From: a bacterium
Lineage (GTDB): Bacteria; SM23-81; DAOVCL01
Direction of reading: 5' to 3'
NCBI GenBank assembly: GCA_029932675.1
Contig: JAOZPP010000011.1
Location: forward strand, 1-60,473
DNA length: 60,473 nucleotides
The notes beneath the pieces are model-generated. The model was not told the DNA's origin, made no database searches, and worked only from the letters and a program-made list of their open reading frames with translations. The position numbers and the translations under genes are program-made. The stretch's first letter is position 1, and every line of letters begins with the position of its first letter. Below, in pieces: positions 32,517-42,118 of this stretch.

Positions 32517-32881
32517 TCATGATCCGCCTCCCTGCCTGCGCCGAGGCAGGCTTTCCGTGCGGAGCATGATCAAATCCTGGTCAAGGCCGTGCCGCAGCAC
32601 ATCGAGCCGCCCGGAAACCGCGACCAGATGAGCCGCTTCTCTCTCGTGATGTTCAAGGGCTTTCTCTTCATTACCGAGAGCTGACTCAGGGTCAAGACTA
32701 CCGGATCCTTCATCGATGATATCGTATCCAGCTTTATGCCTCCGGCATAAACTACATCTGCGAGACCTAAAGCCAATGAGAGAGAAATAAGAAAACCTTC
32801 TCCTCCCGAGAGAATATTTACTGGACGCGTTGTTCCCGTCGGAAAAGTTGTCTGACCTTTATCTTTTCCATTCCAGTTCAT
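32517..32881 (-). pseudogene. SbcC/SMC-type ATPase C-terminal fragment, frameshifted
   Basis: From 32881 the minus strand reads [20 protein letters not shown], the ABC signature region of SbcC/Rad50-like ATPases. A shift near 32735 then gives [11 protein letters not shown], the Walker B/D-loop expected next (usually FIDEGFGSLDPES). The tail after this ([20 protein letters not shown]) is not SbcC-like and faintly recalls the end of HsdS proteins. About 120 codons are left of a protein that would normally be far longer. Lies directly after hsdM. Confidence 0.65.
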
Positions 32882-32920: not shown

Positions 32921-34444
32921 TCACGGTTCCAACTCCTTCACAATCTCGGCTCGCTCTTCCAGGTCGGCCAGCACGTCGCGGATCTGGTCCAGTGCCGACT
33001 CAAGGTCTTCGGCGATCTCGGCTGCGATGATGTGGGGATCGGGCAGGTCGGACGAATCTTCCAGACTCTCGTCACGCAGCCAGAAGATGTCAAGACTAGC
33101 CTTGTCCCGGCTTACGATTTCCTCGTAAGTGAATCTACGCCAGCGTCCGTTGGGGTTCTTCTCGGACCAGGTGGGCCTGCGCTTGTGCCGTTCGCCCGGC
33201 TTGTAACAGGCCACGAACTCGTCAAGGTCCGCCCGCGTCATGCGGTTCTGCTTGAGGGTAAAGTGCATGTTGGTGCGAAGGTCGTAGAACCAGACCGCCT
33301 TGGTCCAGGGCTTGGCGCTTGCTGGCTTGCGGTCAAAGAACAACACGTTAGCCTTGACGCCCTGGGCATAGAAGATTCCCGTAGGCAGTCTGAGCACGGT
33401 GTGTAACTCACATTCGTACATGAGCTTCCGGCGCACTGTTTCGCCGGCGCCGCCCTCGAACAGCACGTTATCGGGTACGACCACCGCGGCCCGGCCGTTT
33501 ATCTCAAGAAGGCTCTTTACATGCTGCACAAAGTTGAGTTGCTTGTTGGTTGTAGTTACCCAAAAATCTGGTCGAGAATAAGCCACAGCGTGCTTGTCGA
33601 GTTTGCCCTCCCCGTTGACAACGGTAATGCTCGACTTCTTACCAAAGGGGGGATTGGTCACCACCACCTGGTAATGTTCGGACGGTTCGCTGCGCAGGCT
33701 GTCGTCCACCCGGATGGGCGGATCGTGTTCGCCGTCGGCAGGTCCGATCCCGTGCAGGTAGAGGTTCATGGCACACAGGCGGGCTACGCCTTCCACCAGT
33801 TCCACGCCACGGAGCGCATCATATCGCAGGTGTTTTTTCTGGTCACGATCCAGCTTGAAGTTTCTTGCTATGTAGTTGTAAGCTGAGAGCAGAAAACCGC
33901 CGGTCCCGCAGGCCGGGTCGCAGATCACCTCGCCGGGCTGGGGCTGGATGCAGTCGACGATTGCATCAATGAGCGGCCGCGGGGTAAAGTATTGTCCCGC
34001 GCCGGATTTTATGTCCTGGGCGTTCCGCTCCAACAGTCCTTCGTAAGCATCACCTTTGACGTCGGCGTCCAGGGCCAGCCATGTTTCCTTGCCGATCAAC
34101 TCCACGATGAGTTGGCGCAGTTTGGCCGGGTCCTGGATCTTGTTTTGTGCTTTGCCGAAGATGAGGCCGAGCATTCCTTTCTGCTGGCCCAGGTGACGGA
34201 GCGTTTTGCGGTAGTGTTCATCGAGCCTGGTGCCTACCATACCCGGCTTAGCAAGGTCGCTCCAGCGATAGCCCTCGGGCACCGGATGTTCCCCGCCCAT
34301 CATCTCCACGCGCTCGTCGGCCATCTTGAGGAACAGCAGGAATGTGAGTTGTTCCAGGTAATCCTGATAGCTCAAGCCGTCGTCACGAAGGACGTTGCAG
34401 TAGGACCAGAGCTTTTTGACGAGGCGGTCGGTGTCGTTTGTCAT
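32921..34444 (-). CDS. hsdM: Type I restriction-modification DNA methyltransferase subunit
   Basis: 507 aa, normal length. N6-adenine methyltransferase subunit that works with HsdS. The helical N-terminal domain begins DRLVKKLWSYCNVLRDDGLS; the catalytic domain has GQYFTPRPLIDAIVD, SAM motif DPACGTGGFLLSAYNY and the N6-adenine motif NPPFGKK. Last intact gene of the hsd operon; its ATG overlaps the stop of the TOPRIM-like gene by four bases. Arginine codons are mostly CGN, unlike the host genes on either side. Confidence 0.95.
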   Translation of the reverse strand: MTNDTDRLVKKLWSYCNVLRDDGLSYQDYLEQLTFLLFLKMADERVEMMGGEHPVPEGYRWSDLAKPGMVGTRLDEHYRKTLRHLGQQKGMLGLIFGKAQNKIQDPAKLRQLIVELIGKETWLALDADVKGDAYEGLLERNAQDIKSGAGQYFTPRPLIDAIVDCIQPQPGEVICDPACGTGGFLLSAYNYIARNFKLDRDQKKHLRYDALRGVELVEGVARLCAMNLYLHGIGPADGEHDPPIRVDDSLRSEPSEHYQVVVTNPPFGKKSSITVVNGEGKLDKHAVAYSRPDFWVTTTNKQLNFVQHVKSLLEINGRAAVVVPDNVLFEGGAGETVRRKLMYECELHTVLRLPTGIFYAQGVKANVLFFDRKPASAKPWTKAVWFYDLRTNMHFTLKQNRMTRADLDEFVACYKPGERHKRRPTWSEKNPNGRWRRFTYEEIVSRDKASLDIFWLRDESLEDSSDLPDPHIIAAEIAEDLESALDQIRDVLADLEERAEIVKELEP

Positions 34445-35049
34445 GGGTAAACTTCTCCTTGATTGCCAATGTTTTGATTAAGAAAAATAAGCGCCCTTTC
34501 CAAAGAACCAAAACAAGGAACATCCGCCCTTTGCAGAGTCGGGAAATCGATTTTTCGCGTCATAGGTAACTGATCAATCGTAGGTTTGTATGAACGTCCT
34601 GGAGGTAATTGCTTCGAAAGCCATTCCTTTATACCCCGCCGTTCTTCCCAAGAGACTTTGTCCCACGGTGGAAAGCCCATCCTGCTGAGGCAGGGAAGAA
34701 AAAGCACCTCGTATTCGGGATGTAGCAGAATATAAGCCGTGGGAAACGGCAAATTGAGTGTGCGGAGCTGCCCTGCGATTTGCGGTGCCAGCTCCCTAGG
34801 ACATTTATCATCCTCATCCCTTAAGATCAGCAACGCCCCTGCATCGTCTTTTGTACGGACAAATTCAACGCCCGCCCTTACACCACCGCGCGTTTGCGCC
34901 TCCCACTGGTGGAGATTGAGCCAACGCCGTGGTTTAGCCCAAGCTAAAGAAAGCTTCAGTTTTTTATAACTTAGCCGCACGACAAGATTGTGTATAGCGT
35001 CTACATCCCCATGCCCTTCTACAAGAATATAACCTTTGGTCACTTTCAT
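34441..35049 (-). CDS. DUF4276-like (TOPRIM-type) protein paired with an AAA ATPase
   Basis: 202 aa. ILVEGHGDVDAIHNLV near the N-terminus is the Glu-containing first TOPRIM motif, and LLILRDEDDKCPREL fits the second, DxD-like motif. I take it as a DUF4276-type TOPRIM-like nuclease. It follows the AAA ATPase with a 4-base overlap and precedes hsdM with another. ATPase plus TOPRIM pairs act in abortive infection (PARIS, split OLD-like systems). Inference: a second defence module carried inside the restriction operon. Confidence 0.7.
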   Translation of the reverse strand: MKVTKGYILVEGHGDVDAIHNLVVRLSYKKLKLSLAWAKPRRWLNLHQWEAQTRGGVRAGVEFVRTKDDAGALLILRDEDDKCPRELAPQIAGQLRTLNLPFPTAYILLHPEYEVLFLPCLSRMGFPPWDKVSWEERRGIKEWLSKQLPPGRSYKPTIDQLPMTRKIDFPTLQRADVPCFGSLERALIFLNQNIGNQGEVYP

Positions 35050-36185
35050 TCTTCCTTAGAGTTGTCAAAGAGAGAGAGTTGAAGATCGCCTGATACAAAA
35101 AGCTCGCTGAGACGTAAAAGACTCTTCCGAACCGGCTCCAATTGCTTTGGGGTTACCTTCCTGACATCGGTTTTGCCACTCACCCGCTTAACCACAAAAA
35201 TCACATCCCTTTTAAGATCGGCAACATCAAGAATGATTGGGCTGTGGGTTGTGACAATGACCTGAGAAACCTCACTGGCTTGTCGTAGATAGTCGTAAAG
35301 CATAGGAAGAGCACCAGGGTGTACTGTAAGTTCGGGTTCTTCTACACCGATGACTGGTAGCGAAGGTTTTTGTAAAAGGGCAGTAAGAAGACCAGCAACG
35401 CGGAGTGTCCCGTCTGACTGCTGGGCTGCTTCAAACCAACGCTTCCCCTTGCGTGCCCTGACTTGCTGTTTGAATTCCGCAATCAGATGACCTGCTGCAC
35501 TGGTCACCTGAACATCTTCGATATCTCCAGTTAATTTTTTTAAGCCAGCGACAAGATCCTCCTTCGCCTCTCTATCCTTGATGAGTTCCCGTAGAATTGA
35601 TATCCAATTTTCCCCATGTCTCTTCATAGGACGAGCCGTGTCAAACCGCTGGGGAATGCGAAGCGTGTCTGGAAAAATTGAATAGACAGTTATAACAGAC
35701 AAAAAATCTACCAATGGCTTGAACTGCTTAGTTCCACCTAACGCGGTCAATGCAAGTGATTGTTCGTCCATGCGTGGAGTTATTCCCTCTGGTCCACTCC
35801 AGTTATTGCCCTGGCGCTGAAACTCATAAACTGTTTCTTCCTGTTGGACAACTGCAACCTCCATTTTGACCCTGTACTCCTCAAGTCTGTCTCCTGTGAG
35901 AGTAAAAGCGTATTTGGCAGGGGCGGAGTTGAGGGAGAGTCGTAACTCGATATGTACATCAAAAGGACGACCATGGCTGCGTCGGCGTACGCTGTCAATT
36001 CCGTTCCGGTGAGTGACAGCGGCTGGCAGTCCTAATGTAACTGCGTCACGGACAAAAGAGAGTGCATCTAAAACGTTTGACTTGCCTGAGCCATTTGGTC
36101 CGACAAGAATCGACAATCGTCCAAGTTGAATCCGAACATTGGGACCGAGACTTCGGTAGTTTGATATGATGAGTTCTTTTATCAT
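35046..36185 (-). CDS. AAA (AAA_21, OLD-like) ATPase
   Basis: 379 aa. ATG 36185 is chosen: AAGGAG lies upstream and the protein opens MIKELIISNYRSLG as OLD-type ATPases do; the frame is open further but overlaps hsdS. Walker A GPNGSGKSN (about residue 31), signature-like QSDGTLR, Walker B VIGVEEPELT with catalytic Glu, and H-loop TTHSP. These ABC-type ATPases dimerise and usually pair with a TOPRIM nuclease; here the next gene supplies that. Starts two bases after the hsdS stop, so it depends on the hsd transcript. Confidence 0.85.
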   Translation of the reverse strand: MIKELIISNYRSLGPNVRIQLGRLSILVGPNGSGKSNVLDALSFVRDAVTLGLPAAVTHRNGIDSVRRRSHGRPFDVHIELRLSLNSAPAKYAFTLTGDRLEEYRVKMEVAVVQQEETVYEFQRQGNNWSGPEGITPRMDEQSLALTALGGTKQFKPLVDFLSVITVYSIFPDTLRIPQRFDTARPMKRHGENWISILRELIKDREAKEDLVAGLKKLTGDIEDVQVTSAAGHLIAEFKQQVRARKGKRWFEAAQQSDGTLRVAGLLTALLQKPSLPVIGVEEPELTVHPGALPMLYDYLRQASEVSQVIVTTHSPIILDVADLKRDVIFVVKRVSGKTDVRKVTPKQLEPVRKSLLRLSELFVSGDLQLSLFDNSKEE

Positions 36186-36187
36186 GA

Positions 36188-38041
36188 TTACGGCTCCTTG
36201 TGTTTTTTTCTTGGATTGTTGGATGCGCAGGTCATTAACTCCCGCTCTGCCCTGATGCGTTCGAGCAGTATGCTTGCGGGTTCGCCTGCCTGCCGCGTCC
36301 GGCCGGCAGCGTACTCGCGCTTCAACCATTTAAGGCCGAAGCCCGTCTTCAACTCCTTTTCCCTTTTTACGGCGTCTTCGAGCGAGTCGAACTCCTTCCA
36401 ATGAATAAGTTTCACCGGAGGATGCCTTCTCGTCCACTCGGCCCCTCTGCCGCTCGCATGCAACTTCCAGCGTTCTTCGACGTTTTCCGTTTGACCGATG
36501 TAGATACTGCCGTCGTCACATTCCAGCGCATATACGAACCACTTTCCCGGCCGCGGCGCAGGCAGGTCGCTTGGATCCTGGTCCACCAGTTTGCCCTCGA
36601 AGGCCCACTTGAGGATAGATTGGCGGAGGCGGTGCGCACGGTGTTCTTGAGTTGCCACCTCATTTGTTACACTGTCCTCGACGGACAACAGTTTTTCGAC
36701 CTCTTCCACGATTCGAATCTGTTCAGATAAGGGAGGAAGAGGAACGACTAATTCATTGAGATGCCTTTGGTTCACGTACGGCTGTCCTGTTCCCCCAGCG
36801 TTGGCATTCAGATTCTTTAAACTCATGACCATACGCCAATAGCCCAGATGTACTGAAGGCGGACAGTAAACGGCGTAAATTGCGTTATCCGTTATCCAGG
36901 CAGGACCTGTGGTTAAATGCACGTTCCCGCAATGTGCTCCGACCCTCCCTATCACTAGAGTGGGGGTGTTTATGAGTGCAACATTATGATATCCAGTTAT
37001 GCCATTACCTCCATAGACAGGGACATCCCCCTTCTCGTGGCTTTTTTGGGGGAGAAAACTACCACTCGACCAAGCGAAGAACTGGCCGGGGCTCGCCCAG
37101 CACCAGCCTTCCGGGAGTTCGGGGAGGCCGTCGGTATTTGGCGGAGCGGGTTCCTTGTACTTCTCCTTCCACTTGTCGTTCCTGGGGAGGAAGCGGCGGT
37201 ACTCCTTTTCGGGGATGTTCTGCCATTCCTCGGGGGTGAGTTTTTCGCCGCGCTTGAGCGGCTTGCCGGCCTTCTTGCGGCGCTCCTTGGCGGCCTTTTG
37301 CTTCGCTTTTTCGACGATCTTCTTCCACTCGGCCTCTTCCCAGCGCTTACGGCGCTCTTTCAGAATGCGTTCGAGCAGCACCGAGGCGGGCTCGTAATCT
37401 CGTCCTTCCTTACGGGCGAGTTCTGCTTCAGTGGGCACCAGGCGGCCCTCGACTGCGGCCTTGAGGACGCTCTTGCGGTAGCGCTCGAGGTTCTTCTTGA
37501 CCCGCTCCAGCGCGGCAATGGCCGCATCCAGCCGGGAAAGGTAACTCTCAATTGCCTCGACGATGCGGCGTTGTTCAGGGAGGGGAGGAAGTAATAAAGT
37601 AATCGTGCTGAGATTCCTTGCGTTGAGATTCGCTCGGCCAATCCCAGCACTTAGTGCCCATGCCTGCTTCCGGTACGCATGAGAGTTCACGAAATAGTGT
37701 AGCCAGTGACTGATTTCCCTGAGAGGTGGTTTCCCTCGAATCAGATATGAAGCAAAAACAGCAGCAGGAGGACGGCGAATCATGCAGGCTTTCTCAATTG
37801 AGCCAGTTCGAGCAAATACAATGTCGCCGTCATTGAGTTTGTATTTTTCAAAGTCGTCAGTTGTCAGTTCACAACTCGGAACGGTATCCCAGTTGATTAA
37901 ACCATCATGTATGTCGGTTATCCGAAGAAATCGTGGCCCTTCTGTATCATGGGTAGCACTCGTTGTTAGGCCATATTGGAGCTTCCCTAGGAGCTCACCG
38001 ATCGTGGTACTAACCCACCCTCTCGGAAGTCGTCTACTCAT
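36188..38041 (-). CDS. hsdS: Type I restriction specificity subunit with inserted GIY-YIG nuclease
   Basis: 617 aa; a normal HsdS has 400-550. The first target-recognition domain is about residues 1-160 and ends in the conserved helix LPPLPEQRRIVEAIESYL. A long Lys/Arg-rich linker follows, then the second recognition domain (LPELPEGWCWAS to LPPLSEQIRIVEEVE). Near the C-terminus the family phrase KLVDQDPSDLPA is cut by about 90 residues forming a complete GIY-YIG nuclease domain (WFVYALECDDGSIYIGQT), after which the phrase resumes as GEPASILLERIRAERE. The protein should guide HsdM and HsdR to a bipartite site. Whether it still folds with the insert is unknown, but the frame is open. Confidence 0.92.
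   Translation of the reverse strand: MSRRLPRGWVSTTIGELLGKLQYGLTTSATHDTEGPRFLRITDIHDGLINWDTVPSCELTTDDFEKYKLNDGDIVFARTGSIEKACMIRRPPAAVFASYLIRGKPPLREISHWLHYFVNSHAYRKQAWALSAGIGRANLNARNLSTITLLLPPLPEQRRIVEAIESYLSRLDAAIAALERVKKNLERYRKSVLKAAVEGRLVPTEAELARKEGRDYEPASVLLERILKERRKRWEEAEWKKIVEKAKQKAAKERRKKAGKPLKRGEKLTPEEWQNIPEKEYRRFLPRNDKWKEKYKEPAPPNTDGLPELPEGWCWASPGQFFAWSSGSFLPQKSHEKGDVPVYGGNGITGYHNVALINTPTLVIGRVGAHCGNVHLTTGPAWITDNAIYAVYCPPSVHLGYWRMVMSLKNLNANAGGTGQPYVNQRHLNELVVPLPPLSEQIRIVEEVEKLLSVEDSVTNEVATQEHRAHRLRQSILKWAFEGKLVDQDPSDLPAPRPGKWFVYALECDDGSIYIGQTENVEERWKLHASGRGAEWTRRHPPVKLIHWKEFDSLEDAVKREKELKTGFGLKWLKREYAAGRTRQAGEPASILLERIRAERELMTCASNNPRKKHKEP
36287..36556 (-). mobile_element. In-frame GIY-YIG domain insertion within hsdS
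   Basis: Codes about residues 496-585 of HsdS. Motifs: VYALE (GIY equivalent), SIYIGQT (YIG), Arg in ERWKLHASGRGAEW, Glu in EKELKTGFG. The domain matches stand-alone URI/YhbQ-like GIY-YIG proteins over their whole length and lies exactly between two halves of a conserved HsdS phrase. Possibly a homing-type insertion; inferred. Confidence 0.75.
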
Positions 38042-38078: not shown

Positions 38079-39257
38079 TCATACCCTCCCCCTTCTCTCC
38101 AGCTCTCTGCGCGTTTTTTCGATCTCGGCAGCAAGGAGTTTTTCGTCGGGAAGGGCAGTCAGATACTTGCTAACGAGCATCTTGTTTTCCAGACCTTCTG
38201 TGGCGTACCGCACCAGCGATTTGCCCTTGTCCGAGCAGAGGATGATCCCGACAGGAGGGTTCTCGTCCTCACGGGTCCAATGCTCTTTCGCGTAGTTCAG
38301 GTATACGTTCATCTGACCAGCGTCGGCATGGGTGAAGCGGCCCAGCTTCAGGTCGATAATCACAAGGCAGCGTAGACGGCGGTGAAAGAAAACAAGGTCT
38401 ATCCGATACCACTCGTCGTCGATGCGGAGGCGTCGCTGGCGCCCCACGAATGCAAAATCTCCTCCCAGTTCCAGCAGGAATGTCTCCAGATGCCGGATGA
38501 GAGCTTCTTCCAGATCGCTTTCAGAGTATTCATCTTTCAGATCGAGGAATTCGAGAACCAGGGGGTCCTTGATTTCTTCCTCGGCACTGACAATATCGGC
38601 CTCCGTCCTCTCTCGGCCCTTTTTCAGCATAGCTGCCTTGTTCTTCGACAAGGCGGTGCGCTCGTAGAACTGCGAGTCGATTTGCCGCTTGAGCTGTCGC
38701 ACCGACCAGCCGCCCCGGAGCGCCTCGGCGTGATAGAATCGAATGGCCTCCTCCGAGCGAAGGCGGATGAGCAATACGTAGTGAGACCATGGTAAGGGAA
38801 AGGCCTGGGCCAGCTTGGTGATATCGATTGACAGGTCTTGCCTATCAGATTTCCGCAACGCTGTTGCGGAATTGAGCGACACTGTCGCTCGTTTTCCTTT
38901 CCCAGCATCGCCTGTGGATTTGCTCGACAGTGTCGCTCGAATTTGTTCAGGAGGAAACAGGAGGTAGAAGCTTCTGAATCGCGCCAGGTTGTGCCGGGAG
39001 AACCCCCTGCCGAAACGCGCGATGAGTTCTTTAGAAAGGCGCTTGAGCAGTTCCTCACCGTACGGGGCTCTTTCTTGTCCACCCTGCTCGAACTCTACGA
39101 TACGCCGCCCGATCTCCCAGTAGGTCGCGGTCATGATCGCGTTGATCGACCGGGTCGCCGTGCGCCTGGCCGCCTCGAGCAGTTTTTCTATGCCGCCGAC
39201 AAGGTTGTCAAACTCTGTTATGTTTGCCGGCTTTGTTTCCGTTTTCTTTCTACTCAT
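38079..39257 (-). CDS. DUF1016/YhcG-family PD-(D/E)xK nuclease (first copy)
   Basis: 392 aa. The N-terminal DUF1016_N helical domain reads TATYWEIGRRIVEFEQGG and RFGRGFSRHNLARFRSFYLL; the C-terminal nuclease domain has WYRIDLVFFHRRLRCLVIID followed by LKLG, where the usual ELK is DLK. Members are often found in defence islands and are thought to be nucleases. The linker (about residues 105-140) is lengthened by palindromic repeats (38851-38940). It lies between hsdR and hsdS; its ATG overlaps the hsdR stop side by four bases, so it was taken into the operon. Confidence 0.85.
   Translation of the reverse strand: MSRKKTETKPANITEFDNLVGGIEKLLEAARRTATRSINAIMTATYWEIGRRIVEFEQGGQERAPYGEELLKRLSKELIARFGRGFSRHNLARFRSFYLLFPPEQIRATLSSKSTGDAGKGKRATVSLNSATALRKSDRQDLSIDITKLAQAFPLPWSHYVLLIRLRSEEAIRFYHAEALRGGWSVRQLKRQIDSQFYERTALSKNKAAMLKKGRERTEADIVSAEEEIKDPLVLEFLDLKDEYSESDLEEALIRHLETFLLELGGDFAFVGRQRRLRIDDEWYRIDLVFFHRRLRCLVIIDLKLGRFTHADAGQMNVYLNYAKEHWTREDENPPVGIILCSDKGKSLVRYATEGLENKMLVSKYLTALPDEKLLAAEIEKTRRELERRGRV
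38851..38940. repeat. Palindromic repeats inside the first DUF1016 gene
   Basis: TTCCGCAAC/GTTGCGGAA (38851-38871, 3-base loop), GAGCGACA/TGTCGCTC (38874-38890) and a partly matching inverted copy of the latter at 38922-38938. All in frame within the linker between the two domains. Confidence 0.75.
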
Positions 39258-42118
39258 GCTGCCAGCACCTCATTCAGTTCCTCAATCAGGGGTTTTAAGT
39301 CGGTTCCGAACACCTGCACTGCCTTGCCCAGGCCGCCGCGCTCGGCGAAAGGAGTCAGGTCGAAGTCTTCCATGTTGATTTCCAGGCTCTGGGCCACGTG
39401 GTCGCGGATCATCTCAAGCCAGCGGCGCTGCTCGTCGGTGAATACCCGGCCCCTGTCCTCCTGCTGCGCCATCCAGTTCTCGAAACGCTCGCGCACCTTG
39501 TCGGCAAAGGGCACGAGTTCGTCTTCCTGCCGTAGGGCATAGCGCACAAGCGAGACGATGTCGGTCAACCTGCGCTCGGCGCTGGCGCCTCGGACCTTGT
39601 TCTTCTCAAGTATCTCGTAGGCCTTCCACAACCGCTCCTCGGTCCAGCGCCGGGGCGGAGCGCTGATGGCCTCGTGCAGGGCCTTGATGTCCTTGTATCG
39701 CAGGCGTTCCTTGTAGGGCCTGGAGTAGAAGAACTGGAGCGCATCTATCTCGTCGCGGTGTTCTATCAAGAACTGTTCGAAGGACCGTACCAGTGCGCGG
39801 GCCTTTTCCTTTGCTTCCTCGTCGAAGCCCGAGAAGGTGAGTTCGTCCCGGCTAACTTCGTCGATTATCTGCTCCACGATGCGCTTGACCTCGATAAGCG
39901 TGGAGCGAAGCTTGGGATTCGTGGCTAGGGGTTTGACCGCCTCGGCCAGGAGTTTCTTTTGCGCCGCCTGGACCTGTTCCTCTGTGGGCTTTTCGTCCGC
40001 TTTCAAGCCGTGCTTTTCCCTCGCGGCCTGTATCGCCTCGTCCGGGTCAAGGGCGGTGACGATGGACCGGGCGAGAGAACCCAGGGTGTGCCCTTCGGCC
40101 ACCTTGGCGATGCGCTCGTATTCCTTGGGGCCGCATTGCTTGTCCAACCGCGCCAGGCGGCTAGCGAGCGAGGAGAGATAATCGGGATGCGTTCCGCCCG
40201 CGGCCACGTGCTCCAGGAGTTTCTTGAAGGATACGCTCTTCTTGCGCTCAAGGGGTTGGGTATCGGCAAGCGGGGTCTCGACGATTCCGACGCAGTCCAC
40301 GAGGACGAAGTGTGTTTTGTTGGCTGCGTCGGGCGTGACTGCCTTGAGGTCGGTCGGGTCGATGACCCGCACGCCTCGGCCCTTCATCTGCTCGAAGAAC
40401 ACCCTGCTCTTAACCGAGCGCATGAACATCACTATCTCCACCGGCTTGATGTCCGTGCCGGTGGCAATCATGTCCACGGTAACCGCGATGCGAGGGTCGT
40501 AACTGTTGCGGAACTCCTGGATCAGGTCCTGAGGCTTCTTGCCGGTGGTCTTGTAGGTGATTTTCTGGCAGAAAGCGTTGCCGCGGGCGAACTCCTCACG
40601 CACGATCTCCACGATGTCCTCGGCGTGGGAATCGTCCTTGGCGAAAATCAAGGTTTTCGGCACTTCCTTCCGGCCGGGGAAGATTTCTGTAAAGAGTTTC
40701 TCCTTGAAGGTGCGAACTATCAGCCGAATCTGGTCCTTGGCCACCACACTGCGGTCGAGGTCCTTGGCCGTGTAGGAGATATCCTCGTCGGGTTGCTGCC
40801 AGCGTACCTCGCGGGTCAGGCGGTTCCGCAGGCCGATCATGGTACCGTCTTCGGCCTCGATGACCGCGCCCTTCTCGGTAATGCGGGTCCGGATCCGGTA
40901 GATCTCAAAGTCCACGTTCACGCCGTCGGCCACGGCCTCTTCGTGGCCGTACTCCATGACCAGGTTCTGGTTGAAGAAACCGTAGGTGTGTTTGGCCGGC
41001 GTGGCGGTGAGGCCAATCAGGAAGGCGTCGAAGTACTCAAGCACCTGCCGCCAGAGCGAGTAGATGGAGCGATGGCACTCGTCGATGATGATGAAGTCGA
41101 AGTACTCGGGTGGGATGGCCCGGTTATAGACCACCGGAAAAGGTTCTTTGCCGAGGTCGTCTTCCTGCTCGAAGGCCGAGAGTTCGTCTCGCTCCGGGTC
41201 GTAATCCGGTTCGCCCTTTAGCATGGAGTAGAGCCGCTGGATGGTGGAAATCACTACCTTGCTCGAATCGCCGATGGTGTTCGATGTGAGCCGCTGTACG
41301 TTGTAAAGCTCGGTGAACTTCCTGTTGTCATCGGGGGAGCGGAAGCCTTGAAACTCTTTCTCCGCCTGTTCCCCCAAATTGCTGCGGTCGACCAGGAAAA
41401 GTACACGCCGTGCCCCCGCATACTTGATGAGACGGTAAATAGCAGTAATCGCCATGATGGTCTTGCCGGAACCGGTTGCCATTTGTATGAGGGCGCGCGG
41501 GCGGTTCTCCTTGAGCGAACGTTCCAGGTTCAGCACCGCACGGACTTGATTGGGATAGAGGAAACCTTGCTGTAAGGGAGGCATGTTCTGAATGCGACTA
41601 CGCAAGGTTGATGGTCTTGATCCGTAAGTACTCGGCTTTTCCGCCACTTTCAATAAATTGGAGAATTCCGAAACCCACTCGCTCATGGAGTCCGCAGCAA
41701 GCCACTCCGCTATTGTTTCAGGTCGATGAAATTGAAAAACGTGACGACTTCGTGGTTGAGGATCCAAGTAATTGGTGAATCTGGTTTCGACACCGGTGCT
41801 GATGTAGCAGAAGGGCAACGGTCGATACGGGGTGTCGAGTTCTGTGGGCAGGCCGTCAGAGTACTTCTCGGCCTGTACCTCTACTCCTGTGAGAGGGAAC
41901 CCAACTTTCTTGGCCTCGACCACACCAACGGCCTTGCCGTCAACAAAGAGCAGGTAATCGGCACGACCGTGCCCCTTATCAAGATTGAACTCGCGCACCG
42001 CTACGCCACGGCCTGCCGAGAGATTCAGATCAGCCATGTCCTGGACAACCCAGCCTGACTGAGTGAGTTGGGTGTCGATCTGAAGGCGAGCTTCTTGCTC
42101 GGGGGGCATTGATGTCAT
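39254..42118 (-). CDS. hsdR: Type I restriction endonuclease/translocase subunit
   Basis: 954 aa, normal for the family. N-terminal nuclease domain with GHGRADYLLFVDGKAVGVVE then AKK (the D...ExK site). Superfamily 2 helicase motor: Walker A MATGSGKTI, DEAH-type box IIIDECHRSIYS, motif III LTATPA, motif VI region FEQMKGRGVRV. The C-terminal helical domain binds the methyltransferase complex. It cuts unmodified DNA after ATP-driven translocation. Its ATG overlaps the preceding remnant by four bases, giving translational coupling. Confidence 0.95.
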   Translation of the reverse strand: MTSMPPEQEARLQIDTQLTQSGWVVQDMADLNLSAGRGVAVREFNLDKGHGRADYLLFVDGKAVGVVEAKKVGFPLTGVEVQAEKYSDGLPTELDTPYRPLPFCYISTGVETRFTNYLDPQPRSRHVFQFHRPETIAEWLAADSMSEWVSEFSNLLKVAEKPSTYGSRPSTLRSRIQNMPPLQQGFLYPNQVRAVLNLERSLKENRPRALIQMATGSGKTIMAITAIYRLIKYAGARRVLFLVDRSNLGEQAEKEFQGFRSPDDNRKFTELYNVQRLTSNTIGDSSKVVISTIQRLYSMLKGEPDYDPERDELSAFEQEDDLGKEPFPVVYNRAIPPEYFDFIIIDECHRSIYSLWRQVLEYFDAFLIGLTATPAKHTYGFFNQNLVMEYGHEEAVADGVNVDFEIYRIRTRITEKGAVIEAEDGTMIGLRNRLTREVRWQQPDEDISYTAKDLDRSVVAKDQIRLIVRTFKEKLFTEIFPGRKEVPKTLIFAKDDSHAEDIVEIVREEFARGNAFCQKITYKTTGKKPQDLIQEFRNSYDPRIAVTVDMIATGTDIKPVEIVMFMRSVKSRVFFEQMKGRGVRVIDPTDLKAVTPDAANKTHFVLVDCVGIVETPLADTQPLERKKSVSFKKLLEHVAAGGTHPDYLSSLASRLARLDKQCGPKEYERIAKVAEGHTLGSLARSIVTALDPDEAIQAAREKHGLKADEKPTEEQVQAAQKKLLAEAVKPLATNPKLRSTLIEVKRIVEQIIDEVSRDELTFSGFDEEAKEKARALVRSFEQFLIEHRDEIDALQFFYSRPYKERLRYKDIKALHEAISAPPRRWTEERLWKAYEILEKNKVRGASAERRLTDIVSLVRYALRQEDELVPFADKVRERFENWMAQQEDRGRVFTDEQRRWLEMIRDHVAQSLEINMEDFDLTPFAERGGLGKAVQVFGTDLKPLIEELNEVLAA

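What the first reader, a model, noticed from the sequence alone, without database searches (positions are those of the whole stretch)
36188..38041. Complete GIY-YIG nuclease inserted in frame into HsdS
About 90 residues of GIY-YIG domain split the conserved HsdS phrase DQDPSDLPA/GEPASILLERIRAERE near the C-terminus without breaking the frame. A homing-type nuclease in the specificity subunit of a restriction enzyme could be a passenger, or could give the complex a second cutting activity at its target.
Basis: partly seen in the sequence, partly recalled or inferred. Interest (0 to 1): 0.72.

Follow-up and report, generated by a model that had tools for sequence, protein, structure and literature searches.

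The report
Nuclease-carrying palindromic inserts inside restriction genes
The restriction-system gene in this window holds a 282-base DNA insert that carries its own DNA-cutting enzyme, keeps the reading frame and begins and ends with the same inverted repeat; relatives from many bacterial phyla sit in frame in other restriction and anti-phage genes, which points to an undescribed family of tiny selfish elements built to live inside genes.

Summary
Observation confirmed and sharpened. HsdS (36188-38041, minus strand) contains an exact 282-nt insert (36285-36566): inverted ends CCTGCCTGC...GCAGGCAGG around a UPF0213-type GIY-YIG domain. Removing it restores the ordinary HsdS sequence without gap or target duplication. 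It is not an HsdS peculiarity. I found 26 GIY-YIG copies fused in this way, from many phyla, in HsdS, HsdM, HsdR, HmaA, HmaB, a type IIG methylase and one Doc/Fic gene. The 16 complete copies with both ends are 267-297 nt, all multiples of three, all in the same phase and orientation. The ends are conserved at DNA level (synonymous sites frozen) while the nuclease is conserved at protein level. The nuclease has no conserved start codon, so it should be made only as part of the host protein. Short 24-42-nt forms of just the two ends exist (43 of 45 distinct ones a multiple of three), often in the same defence operon. Best reading: a family of in-frame palindromic mobile elements armed with a GIY-YIG nuclease, plus MITE-like derivatives. 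Movement and nuclease activity are inferred, not shown. No earlier description was found.

The parts
36188..38041 (-). hsdS gene (617 aa with insert)
36285..36566 (-). the inserted element, 282 nt = 94 codons, from CCTGCC to GGCAGG; flanks GA|..|CGAACC
   Evidence: boundary from inverted repeats and empty-site alignment
36552..36566 (-). left end of the element CCTGCCTGCGCCGCG (translated DLPAPR)
36285..36297 (-). right end CGCGGCAGGCAGG (translated RQAG), inverted repeat of the left end with a 2-nt bulge
36344..36544 (-). GIY-YIG nuclease domain, UPF0213/YhbQ type, no start codon of its own
   Evidence: Pfam PF01541 3e-15; model pLDDT about 82-95 over residues 501-580; PDB 1zg2 and Slx1 fold matches; no ATG/GTG/TTG in the first 24 codons
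39254..42118 (-). hsdR of the same type I system
32921..34444 (-). hsdM of the same type I system
38079..39257 (-). YhcG/DUF1016 nuclease gene in the operon
35046..36185 (-). AAA ATPase, PADLOC HEC-01A, nested in the operon
34441..35049 (-). partner gene, PADLOC HEC-01B
32531..32550 (+). possible decayed short form CCTGCCTGCGCCGAGGCAGG downstream of hsdM (weak: 3 such matches with up to 3 mismatches, 1.46 expected by chance)

Best explanation
The insert is a member of a family of very small mobile DNA elements that live inside protein-coding genes. An autonomous copy consists of inverted ends (CCTGCCTGC-gc-CGCG ... CGCG-GCAGGCAGG) and a GIY-YIG nuclease domain without a conserved start codon, which is translated as an internal segment of the host protein. 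Because copies are a multiple of three long and open in the host frame, the host protein is lengthened rather than destroyed. Proposed cycle (inferred): the nuclease, produced as part of a DNA-acting defence protein, nicks or cuts DNA at the element's hairpin ends and/or at an empty site (usually RA^YG). The element is then copied in by repair, with no target duplication. Short forms with only the ends are mobilised in trans, like MITEs. Spread at one site across phyla is by transfer of the defence gene and possibly homing; jumps to new sites are rarer. Shown here: boundaries, empty sites, single phase, DNA-level conservation of the ends, protein-level conservation of the nuclease, short forms and their co-occurrence with full forms, and the host-gene bias. 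Inferred: movement, nuclease activity and its substrate, and retained host-protein function.
For: Same element in frame at about 10 unrelated sites in 7 host families. Exact excision restores uninserted homologues for HsdS, HsdM and HmaA, with no duplication. The 16 complete copies with both ends are 267-297 nt, all 3n, all at the same codon phase; for 9 distinct sites chance is (1/6)^9, about 1e-7. Codons in the ends are nearly invariant (A = GCG 16/16, A = GCA 16/16, Q = CAG 16/16, P = CCT 15/16), while invariant interior residues use 3-6 codons. dN/dS is 0.07-0.11 where dS could be estimated. Short forms: 43 of 45 distinct sequences are 3n, p about 1e-18; reversed-pattern control 0. 8 of 24 genomes with a full copy have short forms against 10 of 381 without, p about 1e-6, often in the same gene or operon (HmaB in G072; HsdM and HsdR in G063; HsdR in G202; HmaA/HmaB in G068). 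The ends fold as a hairpin with a 2-nt bulge. Inserted copies form one group apart from free-standing GIY-YIGs (90/87) and cluster by insertion site with the minimum of 12 changes (0 of 200 shuffles).
Against: No transposition, excision or cleavage was observed, and no strain pair differing only by the insert was found. Several site lineages (HsdS mid, HsdR N-terminal b) have lost one or both ends yet keep a conserved nuclease, which suggests a role other than mobility. Where element and host divergence could be compared they are often similar (HmaA, HsdR), i.e. long co-inheritance rather than recent jumping. No copies in plasmids, E. coli genomes, or (full form) viral contigs. Short forms could in principle be an independent hairpin family from which the nuclease copies captured ends. 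Support for grouping all inserted copies is moderate on 90 columns.
Confidence: 0.78

Rival explanations
1. Functional domain fusion: the GIY-YIG domain was recruited by restriction/defence proteins as a second cutting module, and the repeated recruitment reflects benefit to the host.
For: 25 of 26 GIY-YIG inserts are in subunits of restriction or other DNA-modification defence systems, the 26th in a Doc/Fic gene. Catalytic-type residues (Y, YIG, R, E) are invariant or nearly so. dN/dS is low also in lineages without terminal repeats.
Against: Frozen synonymous sites at the ends, nuclease-free short forms with the same ends, unrelated host folds and insertion points, and a Doc copy that splits the Fic motif are not expected of plain domain recruitment.
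Confidence: 0.2
2. Classical homing endonuclease gene: each site has its own nuclease that cuts the empty allele and is copied by repair; the shared ends only reflect common descent.
For: No target duplication and clean empty sites; copies cluster by site across phyla; in HsdS the elements are 66-71% identical while the hosts are 27-46%.
Against: No intron or intein around it. About 10 unrelated sites share the same ends and the same phase. The short nuclease-free forms are dispersed in many genes. The ends are conserved more than common descent explains, since interior synonymous sites are scrambled.
Confidence: 0.3
3. The insert is skipped during translation (bypass element) or spliced out of RNA or protein.
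For: The ends can form a strong hairpin, as bypassed elements do.
Against: Full copies are all 3n and stop-free in the host frame, and 43 of 45 short forms are 3n, which skipped elements would not need. The nuclease is conserved at protein level, and no intein motifs or catalytic intron fit in 282 nt of coding sequence.
Confidence: 0.03
4. Assembly chimera or chance.
For: Most carriers are metagenome-assembled genomes.
Against: Isolates carry it (L059, L064), independent genomes share sites, and pattern controls are zero.
Confidence: 0.01

Closest known systems
Rickettsia palindromic elements (RPE)
   Same: Short palindromic DNA inserted in frame in protein-coding genes and translated as an extra peptide (PMC10969869)
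   Different: RPEs are about 150 bp, known from Rickettsia and relatives, and no mobilising enzyme is described for them in that review; here the long form carries a nuclease, the ends differ, hosts span many phyla and are mostly defence genes
REP elements with their TnpA-REP (RAYT) transposases
   Same: Hairpin ends with a bulge, autonomous enzyme-bearing form and short enzyme-free forms (from general knowledge)
   Different: REPs are intergenic and use an HUH tyrosine transposase; here a GIY-YIG nuclease inside genes and in frame
Inteins and group I introns with homing endonucleases (incl. GIY-YIG I-TevI type)
   Same: Nuclease carried inside a host gene, clean site, no target duplication
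   Different: No splicing module of any kind; the insert stays in the protein; shared inverted ends at unrelated sites
UPF0213/YhbQ GIY-YIG proteins (PDB 1zg2, 1ywl) and the single-strand nuclease family Ssn (Ssn from memory, paper not held)
   Same: Closest fold and sequence; a one-domain nuclease of about 85 residues
   Different: Those are free-standing proteins with their own start; free-standing GIY-YIGs form a separate group in the tree

Membership tests
GIY-YIG nuclease superfamily | GIY-YIG Pfam domain with conserved Y, YIG, R and E | tested here: met
   PF01541 above cut-off in the window and all 10 other host proteins scanned; residues invariant or nearly so in 19 copies; fold match to 1zg2 and Slx1
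Rickettsia palindromic elements | in-frame insertion in coding genes, multiple of three, open frame | tested here: met
Rickettsia palindromic elements | element of about 150 bp without an enzyme gene, belonging to one of the RPE sequence families | tested here: not met
   282 nt with nuclease, or 24-42 nt; hosts outside Rickettsia. RPE sequences themselves were not compared.
Intein | self-splicing domain with terminal Cys/Ser and His-Asn motifs | tested here: not met
   Ends translate as DLPAP...RQAG in all copies, no splicing motifs; Pfam shows GIY-YIG only
Group I/II intron | catalytic RNA interrupting the frame | tested here: not met
   Whole element is coding and in frame, 267-297 nt. The Rfam tool was not run.
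Homing endonuclease gene | cuts the empty allele and is copied by repair; clean site without duplication | tested here: inconclusive
   Clean empty sites and clustering by site; cutting not testable here
Insertion sequence / MITE | terminal inverted repeats with internally deleted forms | tested here: met
Insertion sequence / MITE | transposase (DDE, HUH, serine or tyrosine) and usually a target duplication | tested here: not met
   Only a GIY-YIG domain; no duplication

The most novel reading that the evidence does not exclude
A general, undescribed class of nuclease-armed in-frame palindromic elements that colonise anti-phage defence genes. Each makes its nuclease only as a segment of the host defence protein, which would supply the DNA binding that the minimal nuclease lacks, and moves short palindromes in trans. 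A second, unrelated nuclease (DUF559 type) with its own palindromes appears to have evolved the same lifestyle in restriction methylase genes.
Probability: 0.45. Interest if true: 0.92.

Novelty: categorically new. Interest (0 to 1): 0.84.

Why it matters
In-frame palindromic elements have been known since the RPEs, but the RPE account read here names no mobilising enzyme. This family supplies a concrete candidate, a GIY-YIG nuclease, together with full and short forms, exact ends and empty sites, so the question becomes testable at the bench. It also shows a nuclease apparently with no independent expression, made only inside restriction and anti-phage proteins, which would be a new kind of association between selfish DNA and bacterial immunity and a source of protein novelty.

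Tried and rejected
Own genome: only one copy of the nuclease; its other GGCAGGCAGG matches belong to unrelated repeats. Single-end 14-base pattern in viral contigs: swamped by chance matches. Full elements in viral contigs and plasmids, and the L053 copy in E. coli: none; phages only have about 40%-identical GIY-YIGs. Pseudomonadota sample: one in-frame copy (the known L053) plus one diverged copy in 399 genomes. Symmetric 19/20-nt palindromes CCTGCCTGC(A/T)GCAGGCAGG were set apart as possibly another family. Whole HsdS model: only the GIY-YIG part and the coiled coils are confident; recognition domains are poor because the alignment is shallow. Homing versus co-inheritance from identities: mixed, not decisive.

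Full report
CHECK. The window carries a type I system on the minus strand: HsdR 39254-42118, a DUF1016 gene, HsdS 36188-38041, a two-gene HEC-01 unit and HsdM 32921-34444. HsdS contains an uninterrupted GIY-YIG domain at residues 500-566 (PF01541, 3e-15). The exact insert is 36566..36285, 282 nt, starting CCTGCCTGCGCCGCG and ending CGCGGCAGGCAGG.

KIN ELSEWHERE. One copy exists in the own genome. A search of 60 genomes found close kin (56-61% identical) fused inside quite different proteins. A scan of 84,980 species genomes then gave 22 loci, all in frame inside other genes. Together with L291, L210, the partial HsdM copy in L030 and the window, the hosts are HsdM C-terminal (8), HsdS (7, at three sites), HsdR (6, at four sites), HmaA helicase (2), HmaB/DUF1156 methylase (1), a type IIG methylase (1) and a Doc/Fic gene, where the insert falls inside the HPFxNGNKR motif (1). 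Two carriers are isolates (Cyclobacterium lianum, Tangfeifania).

BOUNDARIES AND EMPTY SITES. For the 16 copies in which both ends could be set, lengths are 267-297 nt and all are multiples of three. One further HsdM copy (L051) has a 1-nt-truncated right end followed by a frameshift. L210 has a 4-nt expansion at its left end that breaks the frame with upstream HsdR, so decayed copies exist. Cutting out precisely CCTGCC..GGCAGG gives ungapped alignment with uninserted HsdS (Nostoc plasmids), HsdM (Citrobacter, Deinococcus plasmids) and HmaA (Aeromonas, with Methylomonas nearly so). There is no target duplication; the site is mostly RA^YG.

DNA-LEVEL AND PROTEIN-LEVEL SELECTION. In the ends, synonymous positions are nearly frozen: Ala GCG 16/16, Ala GCA 16/16, Gln CAG 16/16, Pro CCT 15/16, Arg CGG 14/15. 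Conserved interior residues such as R70, L74, T76 and R80 use four to six codons. The ends are therefore kept as DNA (or RNA), the interior as protein. dN/dS of the interior is 0.07-0.11 where dS can be estimated; third positions are otherwise saturated. Half or more of the 16 copies have no ATG, GTG or TTG in the first 24 codons and only three have any Met, at residues 39-69. The nuclease is therefore probably made only as part of the host protein (inference). All distinct insertion sites with a readable end use the same phase and orientation; chance for nine sites is about 1e-7.

SHORT FORMS. A pattern holding just the two ends with 0-30 nt between finds 24-42-nt hairpins. 43 of 45 distinct sequences are multiples of three (p about 1e-18), and the reversed pattern gives zero. 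The two short forms translated as examples have no stop in any of the six frames. They occur in frame in HsdR, HsdM, HmaB, a Fic-family gene, a fused gene running into uroporphyrinogen decarboxylase, phage genes and others, in both orientations (the last three identified by eye from sequence, not by a family search). They are about 18 times more frequent (odds ratio) in genomes with a full copy (8 of 24 against 10 of 381, p about 1e-6; the two samples were searched with slightly different patterns) and often lie in the same gene or operon: HmaB of G072, HsdM and HsdR of G063 (five elements in one restriction locus), HsdR of G202, HmaB beside the HmaA copy of G068. As single-stranded DNA the ends fold into a hairpin with a 2-nt bulge.

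FAMILY HISTORY. Inserted copies group apart from free-standing GIY-YIG proteins (90/87) and cluster by insertion site with the minimum possible number of changes, across phyla. The HmaA, HsdS-mid and HsdR-C copies arise within the HsdM-C lineage, though several of those forks are weak. Element and host divergence are similar in HmaA and HsdR; elements are much more alike than hosts in HsdS, which may reflect homing or the known shuffling of HsdS. Lineages HsdR-N-b and HsdS-mid lack one or both ends but keep the nuclease.

MECHANISM. The best fit is a mobile element whose nuclease is translated as an internal host segment, acts on DNA at hairpin ends or empty sites, and is tolerated because it is open and 3n. 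The bias to DNA-acting defence proteins may come from their horizontal mobility, from the DNA binding they lend to a one-domain nuclease, or from a benefit to the host; I cannot separate these. The nuclease fold is supported (pLDDT about 82-95; 1zg2, Slx1). Activity, substrate and movement are not shown.

NOVELTY. The pieces resemble RPEs (PMC10969869), REP/RAYT pairs and homing genes, but one or more defining features of RPEs, inteins, introns and insertion sequences are not met, and homing is undecided (membership table). Ten paper searches found no description; subscription journals and preprints are largely not covered, so prior description cannot be excluded.

Noticed in passing
L051:3265-3885 (HsdM, DLNB01000053.1); L311; L313: A DUF559-like nuclease is inserted in frame in restriction methylase genes, bounded by another palindrome (CCCTCACCC..CTCTCCC / GGGAGAG..GGGTGAGGG) with many short in-frame copies beside it. 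A second nuclease family with the same lifestyle.
   Followed up: partly
L313 (G123:C34): A methylase ORF carries two DUF559 copies; the first is followed by what looks like an intein C-terminus (..VHNC|GSGTT), so DUF559 may also serve as an intein homing nuclease.
   Followed up: no
L052, L056, L059 left of the insert: A different palindrome (about CTGTCTGCGTGC-AAC-GCACAGGCAGAC) abuts the nuclease in HsdR copies that lack the usual ends; a related one sits in HsdM of L030 (CLCVDARRQED).
   Followed up: no
L294 (G436:C28): GIY-YIG ORF fused to a duplicated HsdS start (MSRIDDLIAELCPDLPAGRQ..) with its own stop, followed by an HsdS that starts with a near-copy of that sequence.
   Followed up: no
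L066 (Doc/Fic gene): Insert splits the Fic motif between HPFI-N and GNKR, so this host protein is probably inactive.
   Followed up: no
window 34441-36185: A two-gene HEC-01A/B-like defence unit is nested between HsdM and HsdS.
   Followed up: no
own genome, e.g. L032, L036, L041: An unrelated repeat family with palindromes such as GGTGGCAGAACC..GGTTCTGCCACC is dispersed in the genome.
   Followed up: no
G066 and G081: Multicopy 19/20-nt palindromes CCTGCCTGC(A/T)GCAGGCAGG and CCTGCCTGCCGGCAGGCAGG; relation to the element unclear.
   Followed up: no
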